This document shows positions 21,307 through 30,778 of a stretch of DNA of 34,696 nucleotides, piece by piece. Both the position numbers and the translations under genes were made by a program. The DNA comes from an uncultured Bacteroidales bacterium. Lineage in GTDB: Bacteria > Bacteroidota > Bacteroidia > Bacteroidales > UBA4417. Below the pieces are notes generated by a model. It saw nothing but the letters and a program-made list of their open reading frames with translations. It was not told the DNA's origin and did no database searches. The stretch's first letter is position 1. The number at the start of each line of letters is the position of its first letter. The stretch covers positions 1 through 34,696 of the forward strand of contig CAIRMR010000084.1 of NCBI GenBank assembly GCA_903879715.1. Direction: 5' to 3'.

Positions 21307-22611
21307 TTATTCCGGCATCAAACACCACACAGCATACAAAGGCACCGATCTGATATGATTTTCGAAACCAAAGTTTTTTCCTGAAATGCGAATGCCATAG
21401 CCGGAGTTGTATTGTTTCATAAACATGTTGAGCGACGCTGACTTTGTTCTTTTACCTTTTTTTACTTCAACCGGAATAACCTCGCCCGAAATCTGCACCA
21501 CAAAATCCAATTCGGCGGTATTTTCGTTTTTCCAGTAATACAAAGAAAACCCATTGCAAATCAGGGCCTGTGCCACATAATTTTCACTGATCATCCCTAA
21601 AAACATATTATCTTCTTGCAGTGGTGACAATATGGTTTGGGTTGCCATACCCGACTTCATGGTTAGCATACCGGTATCGCCCATATAAAGTTTAAAATCA
21701 CTTAAGTCGGCATATGCCGAAACAGGCATAAATCCGTGTGAGGTTTTCTGGCATTTGAGTGCTATGCCAGCATAAACAAGCCATTCTATCGATTCTCCGA
21801 AAATAGTTGCGGTTCCTCCACGCTGAACAGTTTTGTATTGAAACTTGATATTTTCTTTGGCTAATTGTGCCGGTATTGAATTATAGCAAGCCCTGATTTT
21901 AACTGTTGTTGCAGGATTTGCATACTTCGCCATATCGGCGATGTATTCATTTAAAATTCGTCCCTGAACATCCCTGACTGTCAGGAAACTGGATGAGTCA
22001 ATATACTCTTTTACCGCCGCAGGCATTCCGCCTGTAATCAGATATCGTTTATAAAGTTCCAGGGCTTCATTGTGCAAGGCATTCGGTAATGCTAAATTTT
22101 GATTGAAATGAGTTAAAATATCCTGGCTTAATGCTGTTCGTTTCACTGCCCACTGAAATTCCTCAAAATCCATTGGAAACATGGTCAACTCGTCAACTTT
22201 GCCCACCGGGAATGAATATTTTTCGCGATTAACGGCAACTCCCAACAAACTACCTGCCGCAATGATGTGATATTGCGGAGCTTCTTCACAAAATGCCTTT
22301 AACGATAACAATGCACGCGAACTCGACTGTATTTCATCAAGAATAATGAGTGTTTCACCAGGGATAATGCGCACATCCGAAACAGATTCCAGATACTGTA
22401 CAAGATGCATAGGATTGATATCGCCATCGAAATACGAATTTATATTGCTATTTGTCTCTAAATTGATGTAAACAAATTGATTGAAATGTGAACCGGCAAA
22501 ATCCTTCAAAATATAGGTTTTCCCAACCTGTCGTGCTCCATTCAAAATCAGTGGCATCCTACCAGTCTTATTTTTCCACTGGATGAGTTTTTCCTGGATT
22601 TTTCTTTTCAT
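21307..22611 (-). CDS. AAA_14/DUF4143 family ATP-binding protein
   Basis: This 434-residue protein has the family layout: N-terminal P-loop ATPase (about 17-170) with Walker A GARQVGKT (25-32), Walker B TLIILDEIQSS (about 88-98) and the sensor segment IIAAGSLLGVAV, then a DUF4143 region (about 200-400) ending in ELDFVVQISGEVIPVEVKKGK, a PD-(D/E)xK-nuclease-like pattern (Asp, then VEVK). Such proteins are very common, often in several copies, in Bacteroidota and archaea, and their function is poorly known. It is convergent with transaldolase and starts beside a long inverted repeat with a truncated P-loop fragment on the other side. It looks like an insertion that splits the sugar genes from the sorbose-phosphate-reductase-like gene. 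Confidence 0.92.
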   Translation of the reverse strand: MKRKIQEKLIQWKNKTGRMPLILNGARQVGKTYILKDFAGSHFNQFVYINLETNSNINSYFDGDINPMHLVQYLESVSDVRIIPGETLIILDEIQSSSRALLSLKAFCEEAPQYHIIAAGSLLGVAVNREKYSFPVGKVDELTMFPMDFEEFQWAVKRTALSQDILTHFNQNLALPNALHNEALELYKRYLITGGMPAAVKEYIDSSSFLTVRDVQGRILNEYIADMAKYANPATTVKIRACYNSIPAQLAKENIKFQYKTVQRGGTATIFGESIEWLVYAGIALKCQKTSHGFMPVSAYADLSDFKLYMGDTGMLTMKSGMATQTILSPLQEDNMFLGMISENYVAQALICNGFSLYYWKNENTAELDFVVQISGEVIPVEVKKGKRTKSASLNMFMKQYNSGYGIRISGKNFGFENHIRSVPLYAVWCLMPE

Positions 22612-25748: not shown

Positions 25749-26867
25749 ATGGCTATTGTGTTAGAGTATGTTTCAACAAAAAAAGAATTTAAAGAATTTA
25801 TATACCTGCCGGAAAAGATTCATCAGGGACATACGGACTGGTTGCCACCGCTATATATGGATGAAAAAGTTTTTTTTGATCCTGAAAAGAACCATTCATT
25901 TAATGTTTGCGATTACCGCTTAGTGCTTGCTTATAGAGATGGAGTTGCGGTTGGAAGGATTATGGGCATCATAAATAATCAGTATAATGAAATGATGGGT
26001 GTTAAAAATGCCCGTTTCGGATTTATTGAAACCTACAACGACCAGGAAGTTGCCCATGCCCTTATTTCCGAAATTGAAAACTGGGGACGCGAAAAAGGAA
26101 TGACTAAAATTGTTGGTCCTTTCGGATTTTCGGATCGTGAGCCACAGGGATTGCTGATCGAAGGTTTCGATTATGAACCTGTTATTGACAGCGCGTGTAA
26201 TTTCGAATACATGCCAAAACTTGTAGAGGCTGAAGGATATACCAAAGAACTGGACTGCGTAATCTACCGGTATCCTTTGTCGAACCCGCCGCCTGACGTA
26301 ATGTATAAAATATTCGACAGGATTACCGCCCGGAAAGATCTTGAGTTTATCGAATTCAAAAGCAAAAGAGAAGTAAAGCCCTGGATAGTTCCTATTTTCA
26401 GGGCAATGAACGAATCGTTTGGCAATATTTATGGATTTGTTCCGATGGACGAAACTGAAATGCAGGAAATGGCAAAAAAATACCTGCCTGTTATTGATCT
26501 TGAATTTGTAAGTGTTGTGGTTAAGGATGGCAAAGTGATCTCCTTTGTTATCAGCATGCCGAATATGTATAAAGGATTGCAGAAAGCAAAAGGCCGTTTA
26601 TTCCCTTTCGGATTGTTTCATATACTGAGGGCTATGAAAACAGCCAAATCGGTAAACCTGATGATAGGGGCGGTTATTCCTGAATATCAGAAACAAGGCC
26701 TCAATATATATTTATCGATTTCTACAATTAAAGCTGCCATCAGAAGAGGAATGACCAGCGTTGATACACATGTTGTGATGGAAAAAAATGACGATATGTC
26801 GAATGAATTTAAACGCTATGGCGCATTTATGATTAAAAAATTCAGGGTATACCAGAAGTCTTTATAA
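25749..26867 (+). CDS. GNAT-like acyltransferase family protein
   Basis: This 372-residue protein begins with a short region typical of the YghO-like group (FKEFIYLPEKIHQGHTDWLPPLYMDEKVFFDPEKNHSF), followed by a GNAT-like N-terminal lobe (YRLVLAYRDGVAVGRIMGIINN, then ARFGFIETYNDQEVAHALISEIENWGREKGMTKIVGPFGFSDREPQGLLIEGFD) and a second GNAT-like lobe (about 230-372) with VSVVVKDGKVISFVISMPN and GAVIPEYQKQGLNIYLSISTIKAAIRRGMTSVDTHVVMEKNDDM. The Q/R-x-x-G-like acyl-CoA loop is recognisable as EYQKQGLN. The acceptor is unknown. The gene stands alone between gene-poor regions, so context gives no function. The start ATG at 25749 has no alternative close by. Confidence 0.82.
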   Translation: MAIVLEYVSTKKEFKEFIYLPEKIHQGHTDWLPPLYMDEKVFFDPEKNHSFNVCDYRLVLAYRDGVAVGRIMGIINNQYNEMMGVKNARFGFIETYNDQEVAHALISEIENWGREKGMTKIVGPFGFSDREPQGLLIEGFDYEPVIDSACNFEYMPKLVEAEGYTKELDCVIYRYPLSNPPPDVMYKIFDRITARKDLEFIEFKSKREVKPWIVPIFRAMNESFGNIYGFVPMDETEMQEMAKKYLPVIDLEFVSVVVKDGKVISFVISMPNMYKGLQKAKGRLFPFGLFHILRAMKTAKSVNLMIGAVIPEYQKQGLNIYLSISTIKAAIRRGMTSVDTHVVMEKNDDMSNEFKRYGAFMIKKFRVYQKSL

Positions 26868-27174
26868 TTTCAACGATACTTTAATCTGCTTATTTCCTTC
26901 TTAGTTTCAGTTCAGGTGGAATTGCAAAGCCAGTTGCTTTATCGACAATTTGCATACCTGCACAATTTCAATTTTATGAAACAGGCTGTATTTAGGAAGA
27001 GGAGGGTATTTGAGCATGAGCATTAACAAAATGCCAAGCACCGAAAGATTCTTTTTCATATTTCTGCGTATTACATGACCAAAGTTAATTGAAATATTCT
27101 GAACACCAAACAGAGTTACCCTGTAACTCCATTGTGGTAGTATGTAAAAGTATTCATCAACAGTTTGGATAAGA
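26868..27174. other. Gap after the GNAT gene, one doubtful small ORF
   Basis: A minus-strand frame open from 27194 to 26907 contains a possible 50-codon ORF from ATG 27059 (MKKNLSVLGILLMLMLKYPP), with a short hydrophobic start. It overlaps no known family and could be chance. No terminator is obvious. Confidence 0.35.
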
Positions 27175-28392
27175 TTATCTGAAGAAAAATCCAATAGCCA
27201 GCCCTGCTAAAGCAGTAATAACCGCAATGATAATTATTTTAATGTTTGTCGCGGTTTGTAGTGAAGTATATGATTCTTTATATCTTCCTGCTATCAGGTT
27301 GGCACTTTCGAGGAGTTTTGTTCCTGATTCTTTTTCTTTCAGAATGGAATTGTAGGCATTCTGATTTGCAACGATCTGAGCCGTAAGATTATCAATATTT
27401 TTCTTGTTTAATTGCTTTTCCTGCAGTAGTTTTTCGTTCAGATTATGAAGTTCTTTGTCGTAAACTGTTTTTAATTGCGTAGTTACATCAGCGACTAATT
27501 TGGCTTTGGATTGTGCCAGTTCTTCGATGGTAGTATTGTAGATTTCTTTTAGATACTGGCCAAAAGCAGTTGGCGTTATGAATTTTTTATCTGCAATCCG
27601 TTCTAACAAAGGCGTGTTGACTTTATGCCCTAAAGCAGTTACAAGGAATGGACTGAGATTCAGGCAAACTTCGGCCAGTTCAGATTTATTTATAGATTCT
27701 GTATCAATATCTCCGCCACCCCTCGCGATAACAAGGATATCAACACCTGGATTATCTGATGCCTTTACGGCCGCAATCATTTCCGTAACGGACGAAATGG
27801 TTGCCTGGATAAAACTGATATTGTACAATGATCCTGCCTCCGACATCTGTTCAATTATATCGTGCTGAATAACTGCGGTTTTGCCGATAATTATATTGAT
27901 ATTAGGTTTGCGTTCTTCGTATATGCAGTTTTTAACAAAGCTGTCCAGGTCGCGGAATCCTTTTTCCGACTTTTTCTGTTGTATTTCCAGGGTACGGATT
28001 TCCTCCGAAGTGTATTTGTTCTGAGTCTGATTAACAAGGTCGGTAACTGTGGCAAGCAGGCGTACGGACCCGTCTTTCTCTGCTTTCTTGGTGATGTAGC
28101 AGATAACTTCAATAGTCTTATTATCGGTAAGTTGATTACGGATAAGAGCAGGCACAATAAGCTGTATTGTGTAATCTGATGCTTCGTCTTTCAGCTGGTC
28201 GTAATAGAACCCGCTGTATGGCGTTTTGCCAGTAGCATGGTATATTCCTCTTAAGCCGATGATCTTATTCGTTCCCGGAATTGCAATAATATTTGCAAGA
28301 ATATTGATGATGGATGCGGGGGAATATACAGCTAACTCAGTTGAATTAGTGATCGGGGATATTTCTGTAGTCATGGAAGCAACGTTATTCAT
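27175..28392 (-). CDS. Membrane-anchored exonuclease VII large-subunit-like protein
   Basis: This 405-residue protein has the XseA plan: an OB-fold region (about 25-125, IIGLRGIYHATGKTPYSGFYYDQLKDE and VICYITKK), a catalytic region (about 160-285) and a coiled coil (about 285-365). Matches to the ExoVII core are IQHDII (Asp178), the VIARGGGD motif (Arg224) and ALGHKVNTPLLERIADKKFITPTAFGQYL (His255). In ordinary XseA the last motif is GHExD; here it reads GHKVN, so the acidic residues are Lys257 and Asn259. After the coil, where canonical XseA binds XseB, comes a transmembrane helix (about 384-404, IIIIAVITALAGLAIGFFF) and the C terminus. No xseB lies nearby. It overlaps the upstream SRAP gene by 8 bases, so the two are probably co-translated (an internal start at Met7 is possible). 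Probably a specialised paralogue rather than housekeeping ExoVII. Confidence 0.8.
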   Translation of the reverse strand: MNNVASMTTEISPITNSTELAVYSPASIINILANIIAIPGTNKIIGLRGIYHATGKTPYSGFYYDQLKDEASDYTIQLIVPALIRNQLTDNKTIEVICYITKKAEKDGSVRLLATVTDLVNQTQNKYTSEEIRTLEIQQKKSEKGFRDLDSFVKNCIYEERKPNINIIIGKTAVIQHDIIEQMSEAGSLYNISFIQATISSVTEMIAAVKASDNPGVDILVIARGGGDIDTESINKSELAEVCLNLSPFLVTALGHKVNTPLLERIADKKFITPTAFGQYLKEIYNTTIEELAQSKAKLVADVTTQLKTVYDKELHNLNEKLLQEKQLNKKNIDNLTAQIVANQNAYNSILKEKESGTKLLESANLIAGRYKESYTSLQTATNIKIIIIAVITALAGLAIGFFFR

Positions 28393-29284
28393 ATTTAATA
28401 TATTGGGATTGAGTTTGAGGTTGGTTTTCCTTTATTTCGGATTCTTTCTTCCTGGCCAGCTCTAATCTTTCGGCCATAGTTGAAGTGTCGGCAGCCTTGT
28501 TTGCTTTCCGGGCCTCGTGATAACCGGAACCCCGTGGTATCTGGAAAGCAATTCTTTTTTCTTCGATGAGTAACCTGGGGCCTGTTGGCTGAATCAATTG
28601 CTTGTCATTTTCCAAAGTATTTTTAATCTTCGGGTCAATGGGATAGGCATTCATTAATTTGGAATCGTAGTGTTTGAGCATAGCTGTTATTCGTAATAAT
28701 TCAGTTCCGGATTTGATCCATCTTTTTGCTTCACTGTCGGTTAGAATTACAGGCATACGATGGCTACCGGTCTGGCGGAGCAAGCTGTTAGCTGTTGTTG
28801 TTATAATACTGAAGGCGTTTTCCTGAAAACCTGTGGAAGGATTGAGCCAGCTGTCCCAGATACCGGCTATGGCGAACGGATTTTGATGGTTGCGTAAATA
28901 AACGAGGTATGGTTTTGTGATACCGTTGTTAGAGGTGATTTCGATAAATGCTGACGCAATTACTATGCAGCGTTGCGAACGTATGGGTTTGCGGAAAGCT
29001 TTTTTCTGGATTATCCCGGCAGCTCCTCTGAATGTGGGGTTGTCTTCGCTGTTGGAGTCACCTTCGGCGCGGGCATTAAAAAGGTTCATTTGCGATTTGG
29101 CCCAGAAAGGCGTTAACCCGAATCTGAAGAATTGGATTTCATAGGGCTTTTCGTTGGTGATTACAGGTACAACCTGGCCGGGAGTAATGTTATAATTGGA
29201 TTGAAAGGTAATTGCCTGGGGAGGAAGACCAAATTTGGCTTCTATAGCTTCGAGGGTAGTAGATATGATATATCGGGAACACAT
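28385..29284 (-). CDS. SOS response-associated peptidase (SRAP/HMCES/YedK family)
   Basis: SRAP proteins shield abasic sites in single-stranded DNA by forming a covalent thiazolidine link through Cys2. The 299 residues begin MCSRYI, with Cys2 exposed after removal of Met. Other conserved residues are present: Asn70 and Arg72 in LFNARAEG, Glu115 in ASAFIEI, and His175 in GSHRMPVIL. YNITPGQVVPVI and FFRFGLTPFWAK are family signatures. E. coli YedK is about 222 residues; here an extra charged tail (about 240-299, RGSGYHEARKANKAADTSTMAERLELARKKESEIKENQPQ) is added, possibly a protein-interaction segment. It is the first gene of a two-gene operon with the ExoVII-like protein, overlapping it by 8 bases. 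ExoVII has been linked to removal of DNA-protein crosslinks in other bacteria, so a functional pairing is attractive but inferred. Confidence 0.92.
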   Translation of the reverse strand: MCSRYIISTTLEAIEAKFGLPPQAITFQSNYNITPGQVVPVITNEKPYEIQFFRFGLTPFWAKSQMNLFNARAEGDSNSEDNPTFRGAAGIIQKKAFRKPIRSQRCIVIASAFIEITSNNGITKPYLVYLRNHQNPFAIAGIWDSWLNPSTGFQENAFSIITTTANSLLRQTGSHRMPVILTDSEAKRWIKSGTELLRITAMLKHYDSKLMNAYPIDPKIKNTLENDKQLIQPTGPRLLIEEKRIAFQIPRGSGYHEARKANKAADTSTMAERLELARKKESEIKENQPQTQSQYIKYE

Positions 29285-29484
29285 TGATTAGTTTTTAATC
29301 AGGTTTGTGGCTACAAGATAAGCAAAAAAGAAGCATGATCGATAAAAATAATAGTAACAAGCTTTTAAAACAAATATGGTACGGAATGAAATATGGTAAT
29401 TATGTAATAATTGTAAAGAATTATGTAATGCTTCAGGATTTCGCTGATCTTAATTTTGTAAGAGCCAGTTTTAAACGCAATGCC

Positions 29485-29676
29485 ATGAACATGTATTCAA
29501 AAAAATCAAGTGAAAAAACAGGAGAGGTCATGCATGAGTTCCAGGAAGGAACGCTGAAATCAGGGAAAAATGGCAGTGGAGGAAAAGTGAAAAGCAGGAA
29601 ACAAGCTATAACAATAGGAATAAGCGAAGCGCGGGAAGCCGGATTGAAAGTTCCTGCCGAAAAGGCATCGAAGTAA
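29485..29676 (+). CDS. Small basic DUF6496-type protein
   Basis: The C-terminal 50 residues (VMHEFQEGTLKSGKNGSGGK, then VKSRKQAITIGISEAREAGLK) match a common small lysine-rich bacterial family I know as DUF6496, with function unknown. The frame is open from 29305, but residues before YSKKSSEKTGEVMHEF are not family-like, so the start is probably ATG 29485 or 29491, giving about 61-63 residues. Members occur near stress and plasmid-like genes and may bind nucleic acid because of their charge. It diverges from the SRAP/ExoVII-like operon. Confidence 0.65.
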   Translation: MNMYSKKSSEKTGEVMHEFQEGTLKSGKNGSGGKVKSRKQAITIGISEAREAGLKVPAEKASK

Positions 29677-29770
29677 ATATTGGATTACAAATGGCGTGAC
29701 ATTGCGAATATTTAGAGTGCAGTCTTTACATAATCCATTTCTGAATCTGACACTATAAAAACAACAAACC

Positions 29771-29944
29771 ATGGAACCAAACTTAATTATTCTGATACCC
29801 GGCTTAGTAGCAATGATAGCTTAAATTATCTTTTTTGTACTACGGAATCAAAAAGACAGAAAAGCGTTTATGCGGAAGTTAATTAAAGAGGATGAAGGAT
29901 CACTGGCGTTGGAACATGACACGGAAATTGATCCAGCAGAATAA
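29771..29944 (+). pseudogene. Small membrane protein interrupted by an in-frame stop
   Basis: From ATG 29771: MEPNLIILIPGLVAMIA, then TAA at 29822-29824, then IIFFVLRNQKDRKAFMRKLI and a further 19 residues to a second stop at 29944. Ignoring the stop, the product is a 57-residue protein with one N-terminal transmembrane helix and an acidic tail (EHDTEIDPAE). Small proteins of this form (hydrophobic helix, then R-N-x-K-D) recur in Bacteroidota. TAA could arise from TTA (Leu) by one change. Sequencing error or readthrough would be alternatives. Confidence 0.6.
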
Positions 29945-30190
29945 TACCTGCATCATGCCAGCTCCCAACTAAACATAACCGAACAAATCGAAATTGCTTT
30001 AATTGTGACAAATCCTGCCTGTTTATCAGGACTCATTTATCTGGACGGTTTTATCGTGACACTTAGATTTCTTCCCTATATCGGGACTATGATTGCCCCC
30101 GATATACAAAATGTCTTTAAAAACTTGTATGTTGTTTAAAGTAAGTTACCTTTGATTAGTCCACATTTATAATACAAACTTTAAAAATCA
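29945..30190. other. Gap with a perfect hairpin and promoter
   Basis: TATATCGGG (30077-30085) pairs with CCCGATATA (30098-30106), loop 12 bases, with no T-tract after it. The promoter of the next gene follows at 30125-30154. Confidence 0.6.
30125..30154 (+). promoter_or_regulatory. Promoter of the secreted hypothetical gene
   Basis: TTG at 30125-30127, a 19-base spacer and TACCTTTG at 30147-30154 match the Bacteroidota promoter consensus fully. The predicted start near 30161 leaves a leader of about 30 bases. Confidence 0.7.
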
Positions 30191-30778
30191 ATGAAAACTA
30201 AGTTAATCATTGTGTTTACTATATTAAGCCAATCAATAATAGCACAAATAGCACAAGTAAGTCATGGAAATTCTGGATATTTCTCAGCTAAGGAGTTTAG
30301 TAAGGAAATCTCACTTTACCGAGCAAAACAATTCCTAATTGAGGAGGTTTTAAAGACAGAAAACAAGGTTATTCAATTTGACCTCGATCCATTAGCTGCG
30401 ACAAATTCAGGTGAACTCACCTCCCTTGGATACAAATGTGAAGAAAAAGGTGAAGAAGGTATACTTCTAGGATTTTATGGTAGTTATTGGAATGCGGCAG
30501 GAGTTGTATACCAAGGATATAGGTTTAAAAATTTATCTCGTGATATGGCATTAGAGCTTTTAAACAAGATAACAAAAACAATAAAAGATAGTAATGATTT
30601 TCTTTCAAAGAATCCTGACAACAATAATGTGTATTTTAAATTTGATGATTTAGTAGTTCTAATATATACTCCAATTTCCGAACCCATAATTCGGGTTTTT
30701 TGGGAAGACTTTGACGCAGAATGGACTAGTACTGCCTTTAAAAGAACAAAGAAGAGATATGAAAAAAGTTTAAAATAA
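30191..30778 (+). CDS. Secreted hypothetical protein
   Basis: I do not recognise this 195-residue protein. It has a clear N-terminal signal peptide (MKTKLIIVFTILSQSIIAQ, cleavage probably after IIAQ or IAQ), with no lipobox cysteine, so it is probably periplasmic rather than a lipoprotein. The rest is mixed alpha/beta, with aromatic segments (LGFYGSYWNAAGVVYQGYRF, DLVVLIYTPISEPIIRVFWEDFDAEWT) and a lysine-rich end. It has a strong promoter of its own and no operon partner. Base composition is AT-rich like its surroundings. No catalytic motif is visible. Confidence 0.8.
   Translation: MKTKLIIVFTILSQSIIAQIAQVSHGNSGYFSAKEFSKEISLYRAKQFLIEEVLKTENKVIQFDLDPLAATNSGELTSLGYKCEEKGEEGILLGFYGSYWNAAGVVYQGYRFKNLSRDMALELLNKITKTIKDSNDFLSKNPDNNNVYFKFDDLVVLIYTPISEPIIRVFWEDFDAEWTSTAFKRTKKRYEKSLK

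What the first reader, a model, noticed from the sequence alone, without database searches (positions are those of the whole stretch)
27175..29284. SRAP plus membrane-anchored ExoVII-like operon with altered catalytic motif
An SRAP gene (Cys2, Asn70, Arg72, Glu115, His175 intact) overlaps by 8 bases a XseA-like gene. The latter keeps Asp178, RGGG (Arg224) and His255, but its GHExD motif reads GHKVN, and it ends in a coiled coil and a transmembrane helix instead of the XseB-binding end. Established: SRAP forms covalent links with abasic sites; ExoVII has been implicated in removing DNA-protein crosslinks. Inference: a membrane-tethered module that handles SRAP-DNA adducts, or a defence system with a catalytically changed ExoVII. 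I know of no described system with this pair.
Basis: partly seen in the sequence, partly recalled or inferred. Interest (0 to 1): 0.75.

Follow-up and report, generated by a model that had tools for sequence, protein, structure and literature searches.

The report
Tail-anchored ExoVII-like protein with SRAP partner
A Bacteroidota genome carries a two-gene operon that pairs a protein of a kind known to mark damaged single-stranded DNA with a relative of a DNA-cutting enzyme tied to the cell membrane, and the membrane-tied one belongs to an unnamed family that is often found beside DNA-repair genes or retron anti-phage genes.

Summary
In detail: SRAP (28385-29284, -) and an XseA-like gene (27175-28392, -) overlap by 8 bases; SRAP keeps Cys2, Asn70, Arg72, Glu115, His175. 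The histidine is His256, not 255. The XseA-like protein has an OB-like region, an ExoVII core, one ~130-residue helix, and a transmembrane segment at its very end: a predicted C-tail anchor. It belongs to a distinct family (25 members analysed, 24 tail-anchored; 0 of 12 ordinary XseA). The Asp-to-Asn change at 259 is not the family rule (18 Asp, 4 Asn, 3 Glu). Members lie directly after a type VI retron (SP, HTH, RT) in 3 of 26 loci and within 6 kb of SOS/NHEJ genes (SRAP, DnaE2, Y-polymerase, UmuC/D, LigD, Ku) in 9 of 26 (11 of 26 in all), against 0 of 40 control regions; 15 of 26 have no such partner. The intact SRAP overlap was seen only here; a congener has the same order with a decayed XseA-like gene. 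The genome has no other xseA and no xseB, but 13 of the genus's 16 genomes have no PF02601 protein over cut-off, so this is no housekeeping enzyme. Best reading: a membrane-tethered ssDNA binder/nuclease module of repair and defence islands. Adduct removal specifically is not supported.

The parts
28385..29284 (-). SRAP-domain protein, 299 aa, long subfamily with a polar C-terminal tail; C2, N70, R72, E115, H175 kept
27175..28392 (-). Tail-anchored XseA-like (ExoVII large subunit-like) protein, 405 aa
28385..28392 (-). 8-base overlap of the two genes (translational coupling likely, inferred)
28036..28263 (-). OB-like region (residues 44-119, five-strand stretch) of the XseA-like protein
   Evidence: secondary structure of the AlphaFold2 model; called OB by position and comparison with ExoVII, not by a domain hit
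27580..27903 (-). alpha/beta ExoVII core (residues 164-271) with D178, R224 GGG, H256
27616..27630 (-). GHKVN (residues 255-259), counterpart of GHExD; Asp replaced by Asn259
27238..27573 (-). long helix (residues 274-385), plausibly a coiled coil, where XseA has its XseB-binding part
27181..27237 (-). C-terminal transmembrane segment, residues 386-404 of 405 (predicted tail anchor)
   Evidence: hydropathy

Best explanation
The operon is a local pairing of an SRAP paralogue with a member of an unnamed, mostly Bacteroidota family of tail-anchored ExoVII large-subunit homologues. Shown by sequence: ExoVII core, long helix, terminal hydrophobic anchor, no XseB in the genome, purifying selection, accessory distribution, and linkage of many members to SOS/NHEJ genes or to type VI retrons. 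Inferred: the OB-like region and core sit on the cytoplasmic face of the inner membrane, bind single-stranded DNA and, where Asp is kept, cut it; the long helix assembles the protein in place of XseB; the partner gene supplies or marks the single-stranded DNA (retron msDNA, translesion or end-joining intermediates, or SRAP bound at abasic sites). In the window the Asp-to-Asn change makes binding or sensing more likely than full nuclease activity. Its role is in the DNA-damage response or in defence against invading DNA, not housekeeping ExoVII work.
For: Profile search finds E. coli ExoVII as the only PDB relative at E <= 0.01 (8txr, E 4.5e-13); Foldseek's three best hits are 8txr chains (best E 5.6e-14). 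Tail anchor in 24 of 25 members and 0 of 12 ordinary XseA. The 25 stand apart from 10 ordinary XseA at a 100/100 branch. Partners: 11 of 26 loci have SOS/NHEJ or retron genes within 6 kb, 0 of 40 control regions (13 kb each, 17 genomes that also hold a member) do; p 7e-6, or 10 of 26 and p 2.5e-5 without the DnaE-only locus L080. In L023, L024 and L083 the gene directly follows SP_VI, HTH_VI and RT_VI. L024/L083 and L023 lie in different supported clades, so the retron link arose or moved at least twice. Some members sit beside defence-type genes: Drt8, OLD nuclease, GmrSD-like, weakly SIR2-like, PDDEXK_4 (neighbours chosen by eye, no control). Rarity: 6 strong members, own included, in 395 genomes of the phylum. 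Selection: omega 0.03 and 0.06 in the 2 of 6 member pairs where it could be computed, synonymous change saturated in the other 4. No xseB in the genome.
Against: 15 of 26 loci show no repair or retron gene within 6 kb (flanks were shorter than 6 kb at several), so a partner is not obligatory. The query proteins of the partner test were chosen after seeing these loci, several taken from them, and control places were set by me at round positions, so the p-value is indicative only. Linked loci are partly related (L041, L072 and L074 are from one clade). The link to SRAP alone is not significant (3 of 26 against 0 of 40, p 0.057), nor is the retron link alone (same figures). Membrane topology, ssDNA binding, nuclease activity and assembly are predictions. 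One member (L084) has lost Arg and His and four have Asn, so catalysis may not be the conserved function. The model is of moderate quality (pLDDT 76, pTM 0.47) and the TM-scores to 8txr are low (0.26-0.37).
Confidence: 0.55

Rival explanations
1. Adduct-handling module: SRAP cross-links to abasic sites in ssDNA and the membrane-tied ExoVII removes the SRAP-DNA adduct or the damaged strand.
For: All five SRAP residues kept in the window; same order with a decayed XseA-like gene 66 bases after SRAP in G015:C494; in G011:C456 the same SRAP subfamily lies next to an ordinary XseA-XseB pair, with one 93-aa gene between; E. coli xseA mutants are hypersensitive to quinolones (PMC4437897, passages).
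Against: Of 7 aligned relatives of this SRAP in the genus, 6 lack the catalytic Glu and the seventh lacks Cys2, so cross-linking is not what the subfamily conserves. The XseA-like protein has Asn in place of Asp. In E. coli an xseA mutant is not more sensitive to M.EcoRII-DNA complexes. SRAP can itself reverse its cross-link (PMC9436759, title and passages).
Confidence: 0.17
2. Anti-phage or anti-plasmid effector: the tail-anchored protein is a toxic membrane effector held in check by an ssDNA-handling partner (retron RT-msDNA in some genomes, SRAP here).
For: Type VI retron linkage in 3 loci; defence-type genes beside some solo members (by eye); presence on two Bacteroidales plasmids and a faecal phage-labelled scaffold.
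Against: 15 of 26 loci lack a retron or repair partner, among them three members of family f123 on single-contig genomes, though unlinked or other antitoxins were not sought. Only 1 of 11 RT-bearing loci examined in f122 carries it, and that is L083 again.
Confidence: 0.2
3. Housekeeping or decaying genes: a relic ExoVII tied by chance to a proliferating SRAP paralogue.
For: Decayed copies in G015 (L012, L150) and a broken second SRAP copy in the own genome; Asn259; long end branch of the window protein, 0.88.
Against: Open frame of 405 codons with core motifs and anchor intact; low pN at saturated pS against the remnant; purifying selection in family pairs; missing at E <= 1e-10 from 14 of the 15 other genomes of the genus, so not housekeeping.
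Confidence: 0.15

Closest known systems
Exonuclease VII large subunit XseA (E. coli, PDB 8txr)
   Same: ExoVII core, RGGG, Asp178, His256; best sequence and fold match
   Different: C-terminal membrane anchor instead of the XseB-binding end; no xseB in the genome; below the xseA equivalog cut-off; Asp to Asn in GHxxD
SRAP / YedK / HMCES
   Same: PF02586 and all five active-site residues
   Different: Belongs to a long subfamily of the genus (59-73% identical matches), most aligned members of which have lost Glu or Cys2; 37% identical to the genome's canonical SRAP
Type VI retrons (PADLOC SP_VI, HTH_VI, RT_VI)
   Same: Relatives of the XseA-like protein are the gene directly after the RT in three of them
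   Different: No RT or HTH_VI hit within 6 kb of the window genes; no specific PADLOC match to the XseA-like proteins, only weak matches in L023 and the Prevotella protein
SOS mutagenesis and NHEJ clusters with SRAP (PMC3765255)
   Same: Same kinds of partner genes around 9 of 26 family members
   Different: The words exonuclease and XseA do not occur in that paper's main text (passages read only)

Membership tests
Exonuclease VII large subunit (XseA) | PF02601 over its cut-off | tested here: met
   67.9 bits, cut-off 35.9
Exonuclease VII large subunit (XseA) | Equivalog model TIGR00237 over its cut-off | tested here: not met
   74.3 bits, cut-off 180
Exonuclease VII large subunit (XseA) | Four core residues (Asp, Arg, His, Asp; catalytic roles recalled from Poleszak et al. 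2012, paper not held) | tested here: not met
   D178, R224, H256 present, fourth is N259
Exonuclease VII large subunit (XseA) | Small subunit XseB in the genome | tested here: not met
   0 matches to PF02609 in a 99.56% complete genome
Exonuclease VII large subunit (XseA) | ssDNA exonuclease activity | not testable with these tools
   needs purified protein
Tail-anchored XseA-like family (defined here) | Falls with the other members on one side of a supported branch | tested here: met
   100/100 against 10 ordinary XseA
Tail-anchored XseA-like family (defined here) | Transmembrane segment within 5 residues of the C-terminus | tested here: met
   386-404 of 405
SRAP | PF02586 over its cut-off and Cys2, Asn, Arg, Glu, His | tested here: met
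   147.8 bits; residues
SRAP | Cross-link to abasic sites in ssDNA | not testable with these tools
   assay needed
Type VI retron | Retron RT with HTH_VI beside the gene | tested here: not met
   no RT or HTH_VI hit within 6 kb in the window; SP_VI was not sought there

The most novel reading that the evidence does not exclude
Tail-anchored ExoVII is a plug-in membrane module that reads or destroys single-stranded DNA at the inner membrane, shared between retrons (as an undescribed effector or msDNA processor of some type VI retrons), SOS/NHEJ cassettes and, here, an SRAP partner: a new class of membrane-tethered ssDNA-sensing defence or repair module.
Probability: 0.3. Interest if true: 0.82.

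Novelty: new variant of a known kind. Interest (0 to 1): 0.6.

Why it matters
ExoVII is regarded (recalled) as a soluble XseA-XseB enzyme. A coherent family that is pinned to the membrane without an XseB partner gene beside it, and that recurs beside retrons and mutagenesis cassettes, would join retron effectors, SOS mutagenesis and SRAP biology, and suggests that single-stranded DNA entering or forming at the membrane is watched there. It gives a testable candidate for the effector or msDNA processor of some type VI retrons, and shows SRAP paralogues kept under purifying selection without their catalytic glutamate.

Tried and rejected
Single-sequence scan of genome contigs gave 71 pattern matches and no relative; the alignment scan gave 4. 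Two alignment scans of viral contigs gave no relative. The order-wide search (295 genomes) gave the own gene and one other match, an ordinary XseA. Weak PF02601 matches below cut-off in G003, G005 and G011 (20-25 bits): the two G003 loci read (L016, L020) showed no XseA-like frame; the rest were not read. The idea that the XseA-like gene is a fixed part of type VI retrons was rejected: 1 of 11 RT-bearing loci among the 30 loci held (only 1.5 kb flanks). The idea that SRAP-linked members form a clade was not borne out. Tandem repeats in 26500-30500: none. No PADLOC match for either window gene at E <= 0.1.

Counts: the 26 loci of the partner test are the intact or near-intact members (L070 has an internal stop; L009 is cut short). 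Left out: fragments or remnants L078, L085, L086, L087, L150, L012, and L088 where the script found no member frame. Tree and residue counts use 25 members (L070 left out). The 10 ordinary XseA of the tree were partly picked by requiring RGGG and GHxxD, which biases their Asp count; one search repeats the count on 12 without that filter (10 Asp, 2 Asn, 0 tail anchors). Partner-test queries were chosen after seeing the loci. Neighbours were picked by eye. The coiled coil was not tested by a predictor, and no msr-msd RNA was sought.

Full report
What is there. On the minus strand SRAP (28385-29284, 299 aa) and an XseA-like gene (27175-28392, 405 aa) overlap by 8 bases. SRAP matches PF02586 at 147.8 bits and the XseA-like protein PF02601 at 67.9 bits over residues 164-362; the latter fails the xseA equivalog cut-off. 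SRAP keeps C2, N70, R72, E115 and H175. The model (pLDDT 76.2, pTM 0.47, from 5 sequences) shows strands between 44 and 119, an alpha/beta core 164-271 and one helix 274-404. Foldseek puts three chains of E. coli ExoVII first, with low TM-scores, which I put down to the long helix.

A family. The own protein gave distant hits on Bacteroidales plasmids and a faecal scaffold labelled phage. An alignment of these found four chromosomal or contig relatives (Ilyomonas, Mucilaginibacter, Niastella, a Chitinophagales MAG). Profile searches then gave 6 strong members (275 bits or more, own included) among 15 matches in 395 genomes of the phylum, 10 of 351 genomes in one family and 10 of 344 in another, some of them fragments. 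In 24 of 25 members the transmembrane-type segment lies within the last 19-24 residues; the exception is the cut-short plasmid protein of L009. None of 12 ordinary XseA has it. The 25 separate from 10 ordinary XseA at a 100/100 branch. The fourth core position is Asp in 18, Asn in 4, Glu in 3 of the 25, and Asp in 10, Asn in 2 of 12 ordinary XseA.

Partners. In L023, L024 and L083 the gene directly follows a small ORF, an HTH gene and a reverse transcriptase, which match PADLOC's SP_VI (28-36 bits), HTH_VI and RT_VI (205-243 bits). In L041 it follows LigD on the same strand, with DnaE2 and a Y-polymerase further upstream and a divergent SRAP gene about 8 kb from it. L072 has LigD and DnaE2, L074 Ku, SRAP and DnaE2, L081 DnaE2 and Y-polymerase, L023 also DnaE2 and Y-polymerase, L082 UmuD, UmuC, SRAP and a LigD-type match, L080 a DnaE2-like gene (245 bits; name by recalled motif), L009 UmuC at 5.9 kb. 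All told 11 of 26 loci against 0 of 40 control regions of 13 kb, taken at round positions from 17 genomes that also hold a member (Fisher p 7e-6). The queries were picked after seeing the loci, so the p-value is indicative. SRAP alone and retrons alone are each 3 of 26 (p 0.057 each). Other loci lie beside Drt8, OLD, GmrSD-like, weakly SIR2-like or PD-(D/E)XK genes, an uncontrolled observation by eye. Fifteen of 26 show no such repair or retron partner.

The SRAP side. In the genus 15 of 16 genomes have an SRAP match at E <= 1e-5; the long subfamily (59-73% identical) is in 5 of 16, own included, and has several copies in G015. Of 7 relatives aligned, those of G015 (2), G011 (2) and G012 have Ala in place of the catalytic Glu, G003's more distant one has another residue there, and G014's keeps Glu but lacks Cys2. 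The pairs tested are nevertheless under purifying selection (omega 0.05-0.13). [quoted passage not shown] In G015:C494 SRAP is followed 66 bases on by a 46-residue remnant of the XseA-like protein (50% identical, E 4e-8). In G011:C456 it is followed by a 93-aa gene, an ordinary XseA with GHETD and an XseB. So an SRAP-to-ExoVII link is not confined to this genome, but the intact overlap was seen only here.

Not housekeeping. No other PF02601 and no PF02609 match in the 99.56% complete genome; but 13 of the genus's 16 genomes have no PF02601 match over cut-off (10 of the 13 that are at least 90% complete), and 14 of the 15 others have no match to this protein at E <= 1e-10, the fifteenth holding a remnant.

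Mechanism. Fold and conserved residues point to ssDNA binding and, in Asp-bearing members, cleavage. The tail anchor would place this on the cytoplasmic side of the inner membrane, and the long helix could replace XseB in assembly. The partner genes (retron RT, translesion polymerases, end joining, SRAP) make, use or bind single-stranded or damaged DNA. The most likely common role is processing or sensing such DNA at the membrane in the damage response or in defence. Everything from 'binds ssDNA' onwards is inference.

Literature. Retron and ExoVII papers were seen as search listings and passages; PMC8989520's reference list names work on XseA-mediated cell death. A role of ExoVII in msDNA trimming, and the make-up of type VI retrons beyond PADLOC's model names, are recalled. 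Full-text searches for ExoVII with tail or membrane anchoring or retrons, and for SRAP with ExoVII, listed no paper whose title or abstract describes this family or pair (only the listed rows were seen, and most subscription papers are not held).

Noticed in passing
L023:4535-5960, L024:4582-5955, L083:7267-8647: Type VI retron-like cassettes (SP_VI, HTH_VI, RT_VI) with a tail-anchored ExoVII as the next gene; candidate effector or msDNA processor.
   Followed up: partly
L154:6547-9893 (G011:C456): SRAP of the same subfamily, a 93-aa gene with a weak bPH_2 match, XseA with GHETD and XseB in a row on one strand.
   Followed up: partly
L148, L149, L150, L151, L154 (congeneric genomes): SRAP paralogues with Ala for the catalytic Glu; the two pairs compared between such copies have omega about 0.05.
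   Followed up: partly
G000:C42:1841-2479 (L152): Second, broken copy of the long SRAP (73% identical) in the window's own genome.
   Followed up: no
window 21307-22611 (-): ATPase-type protein matching PADLOC PDC-S01 at 550 bits; a weaker relative (181 bits) lies near the Prevotella plasmid member (L010).
   Followed up: no
L046:4133-12001 and L041 (G521): Genes that by eye resemble conjugative-element transfer genes lie beyond the SRAP, Y-polymerase, DnaE2, LigD and tail-anchored ExoVII cluster, suggesting mobile-element cargo.
   Followed up: no
L011:3250-6946: Faecal phage-labelled scaffold with tail-anchored ExoVII followed by PDDEXK_4 and PDDEXK_13/REase-ARP nucleases; PDDEXK_4 also precedes the B. 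ovatus plasmid member (L009).
   Followed up: partly
L075:2932-4524: Drt8-type reverse transcriptase (532 bits) about 2 kb from a tail-anchored ExoVII gene.
   Followed up: no
window 29305-29676 (+): DUF6496 frame divergent from SRAP, 20 bases away as listed; unknown function, true start codon uncertain.
   Followed up: no
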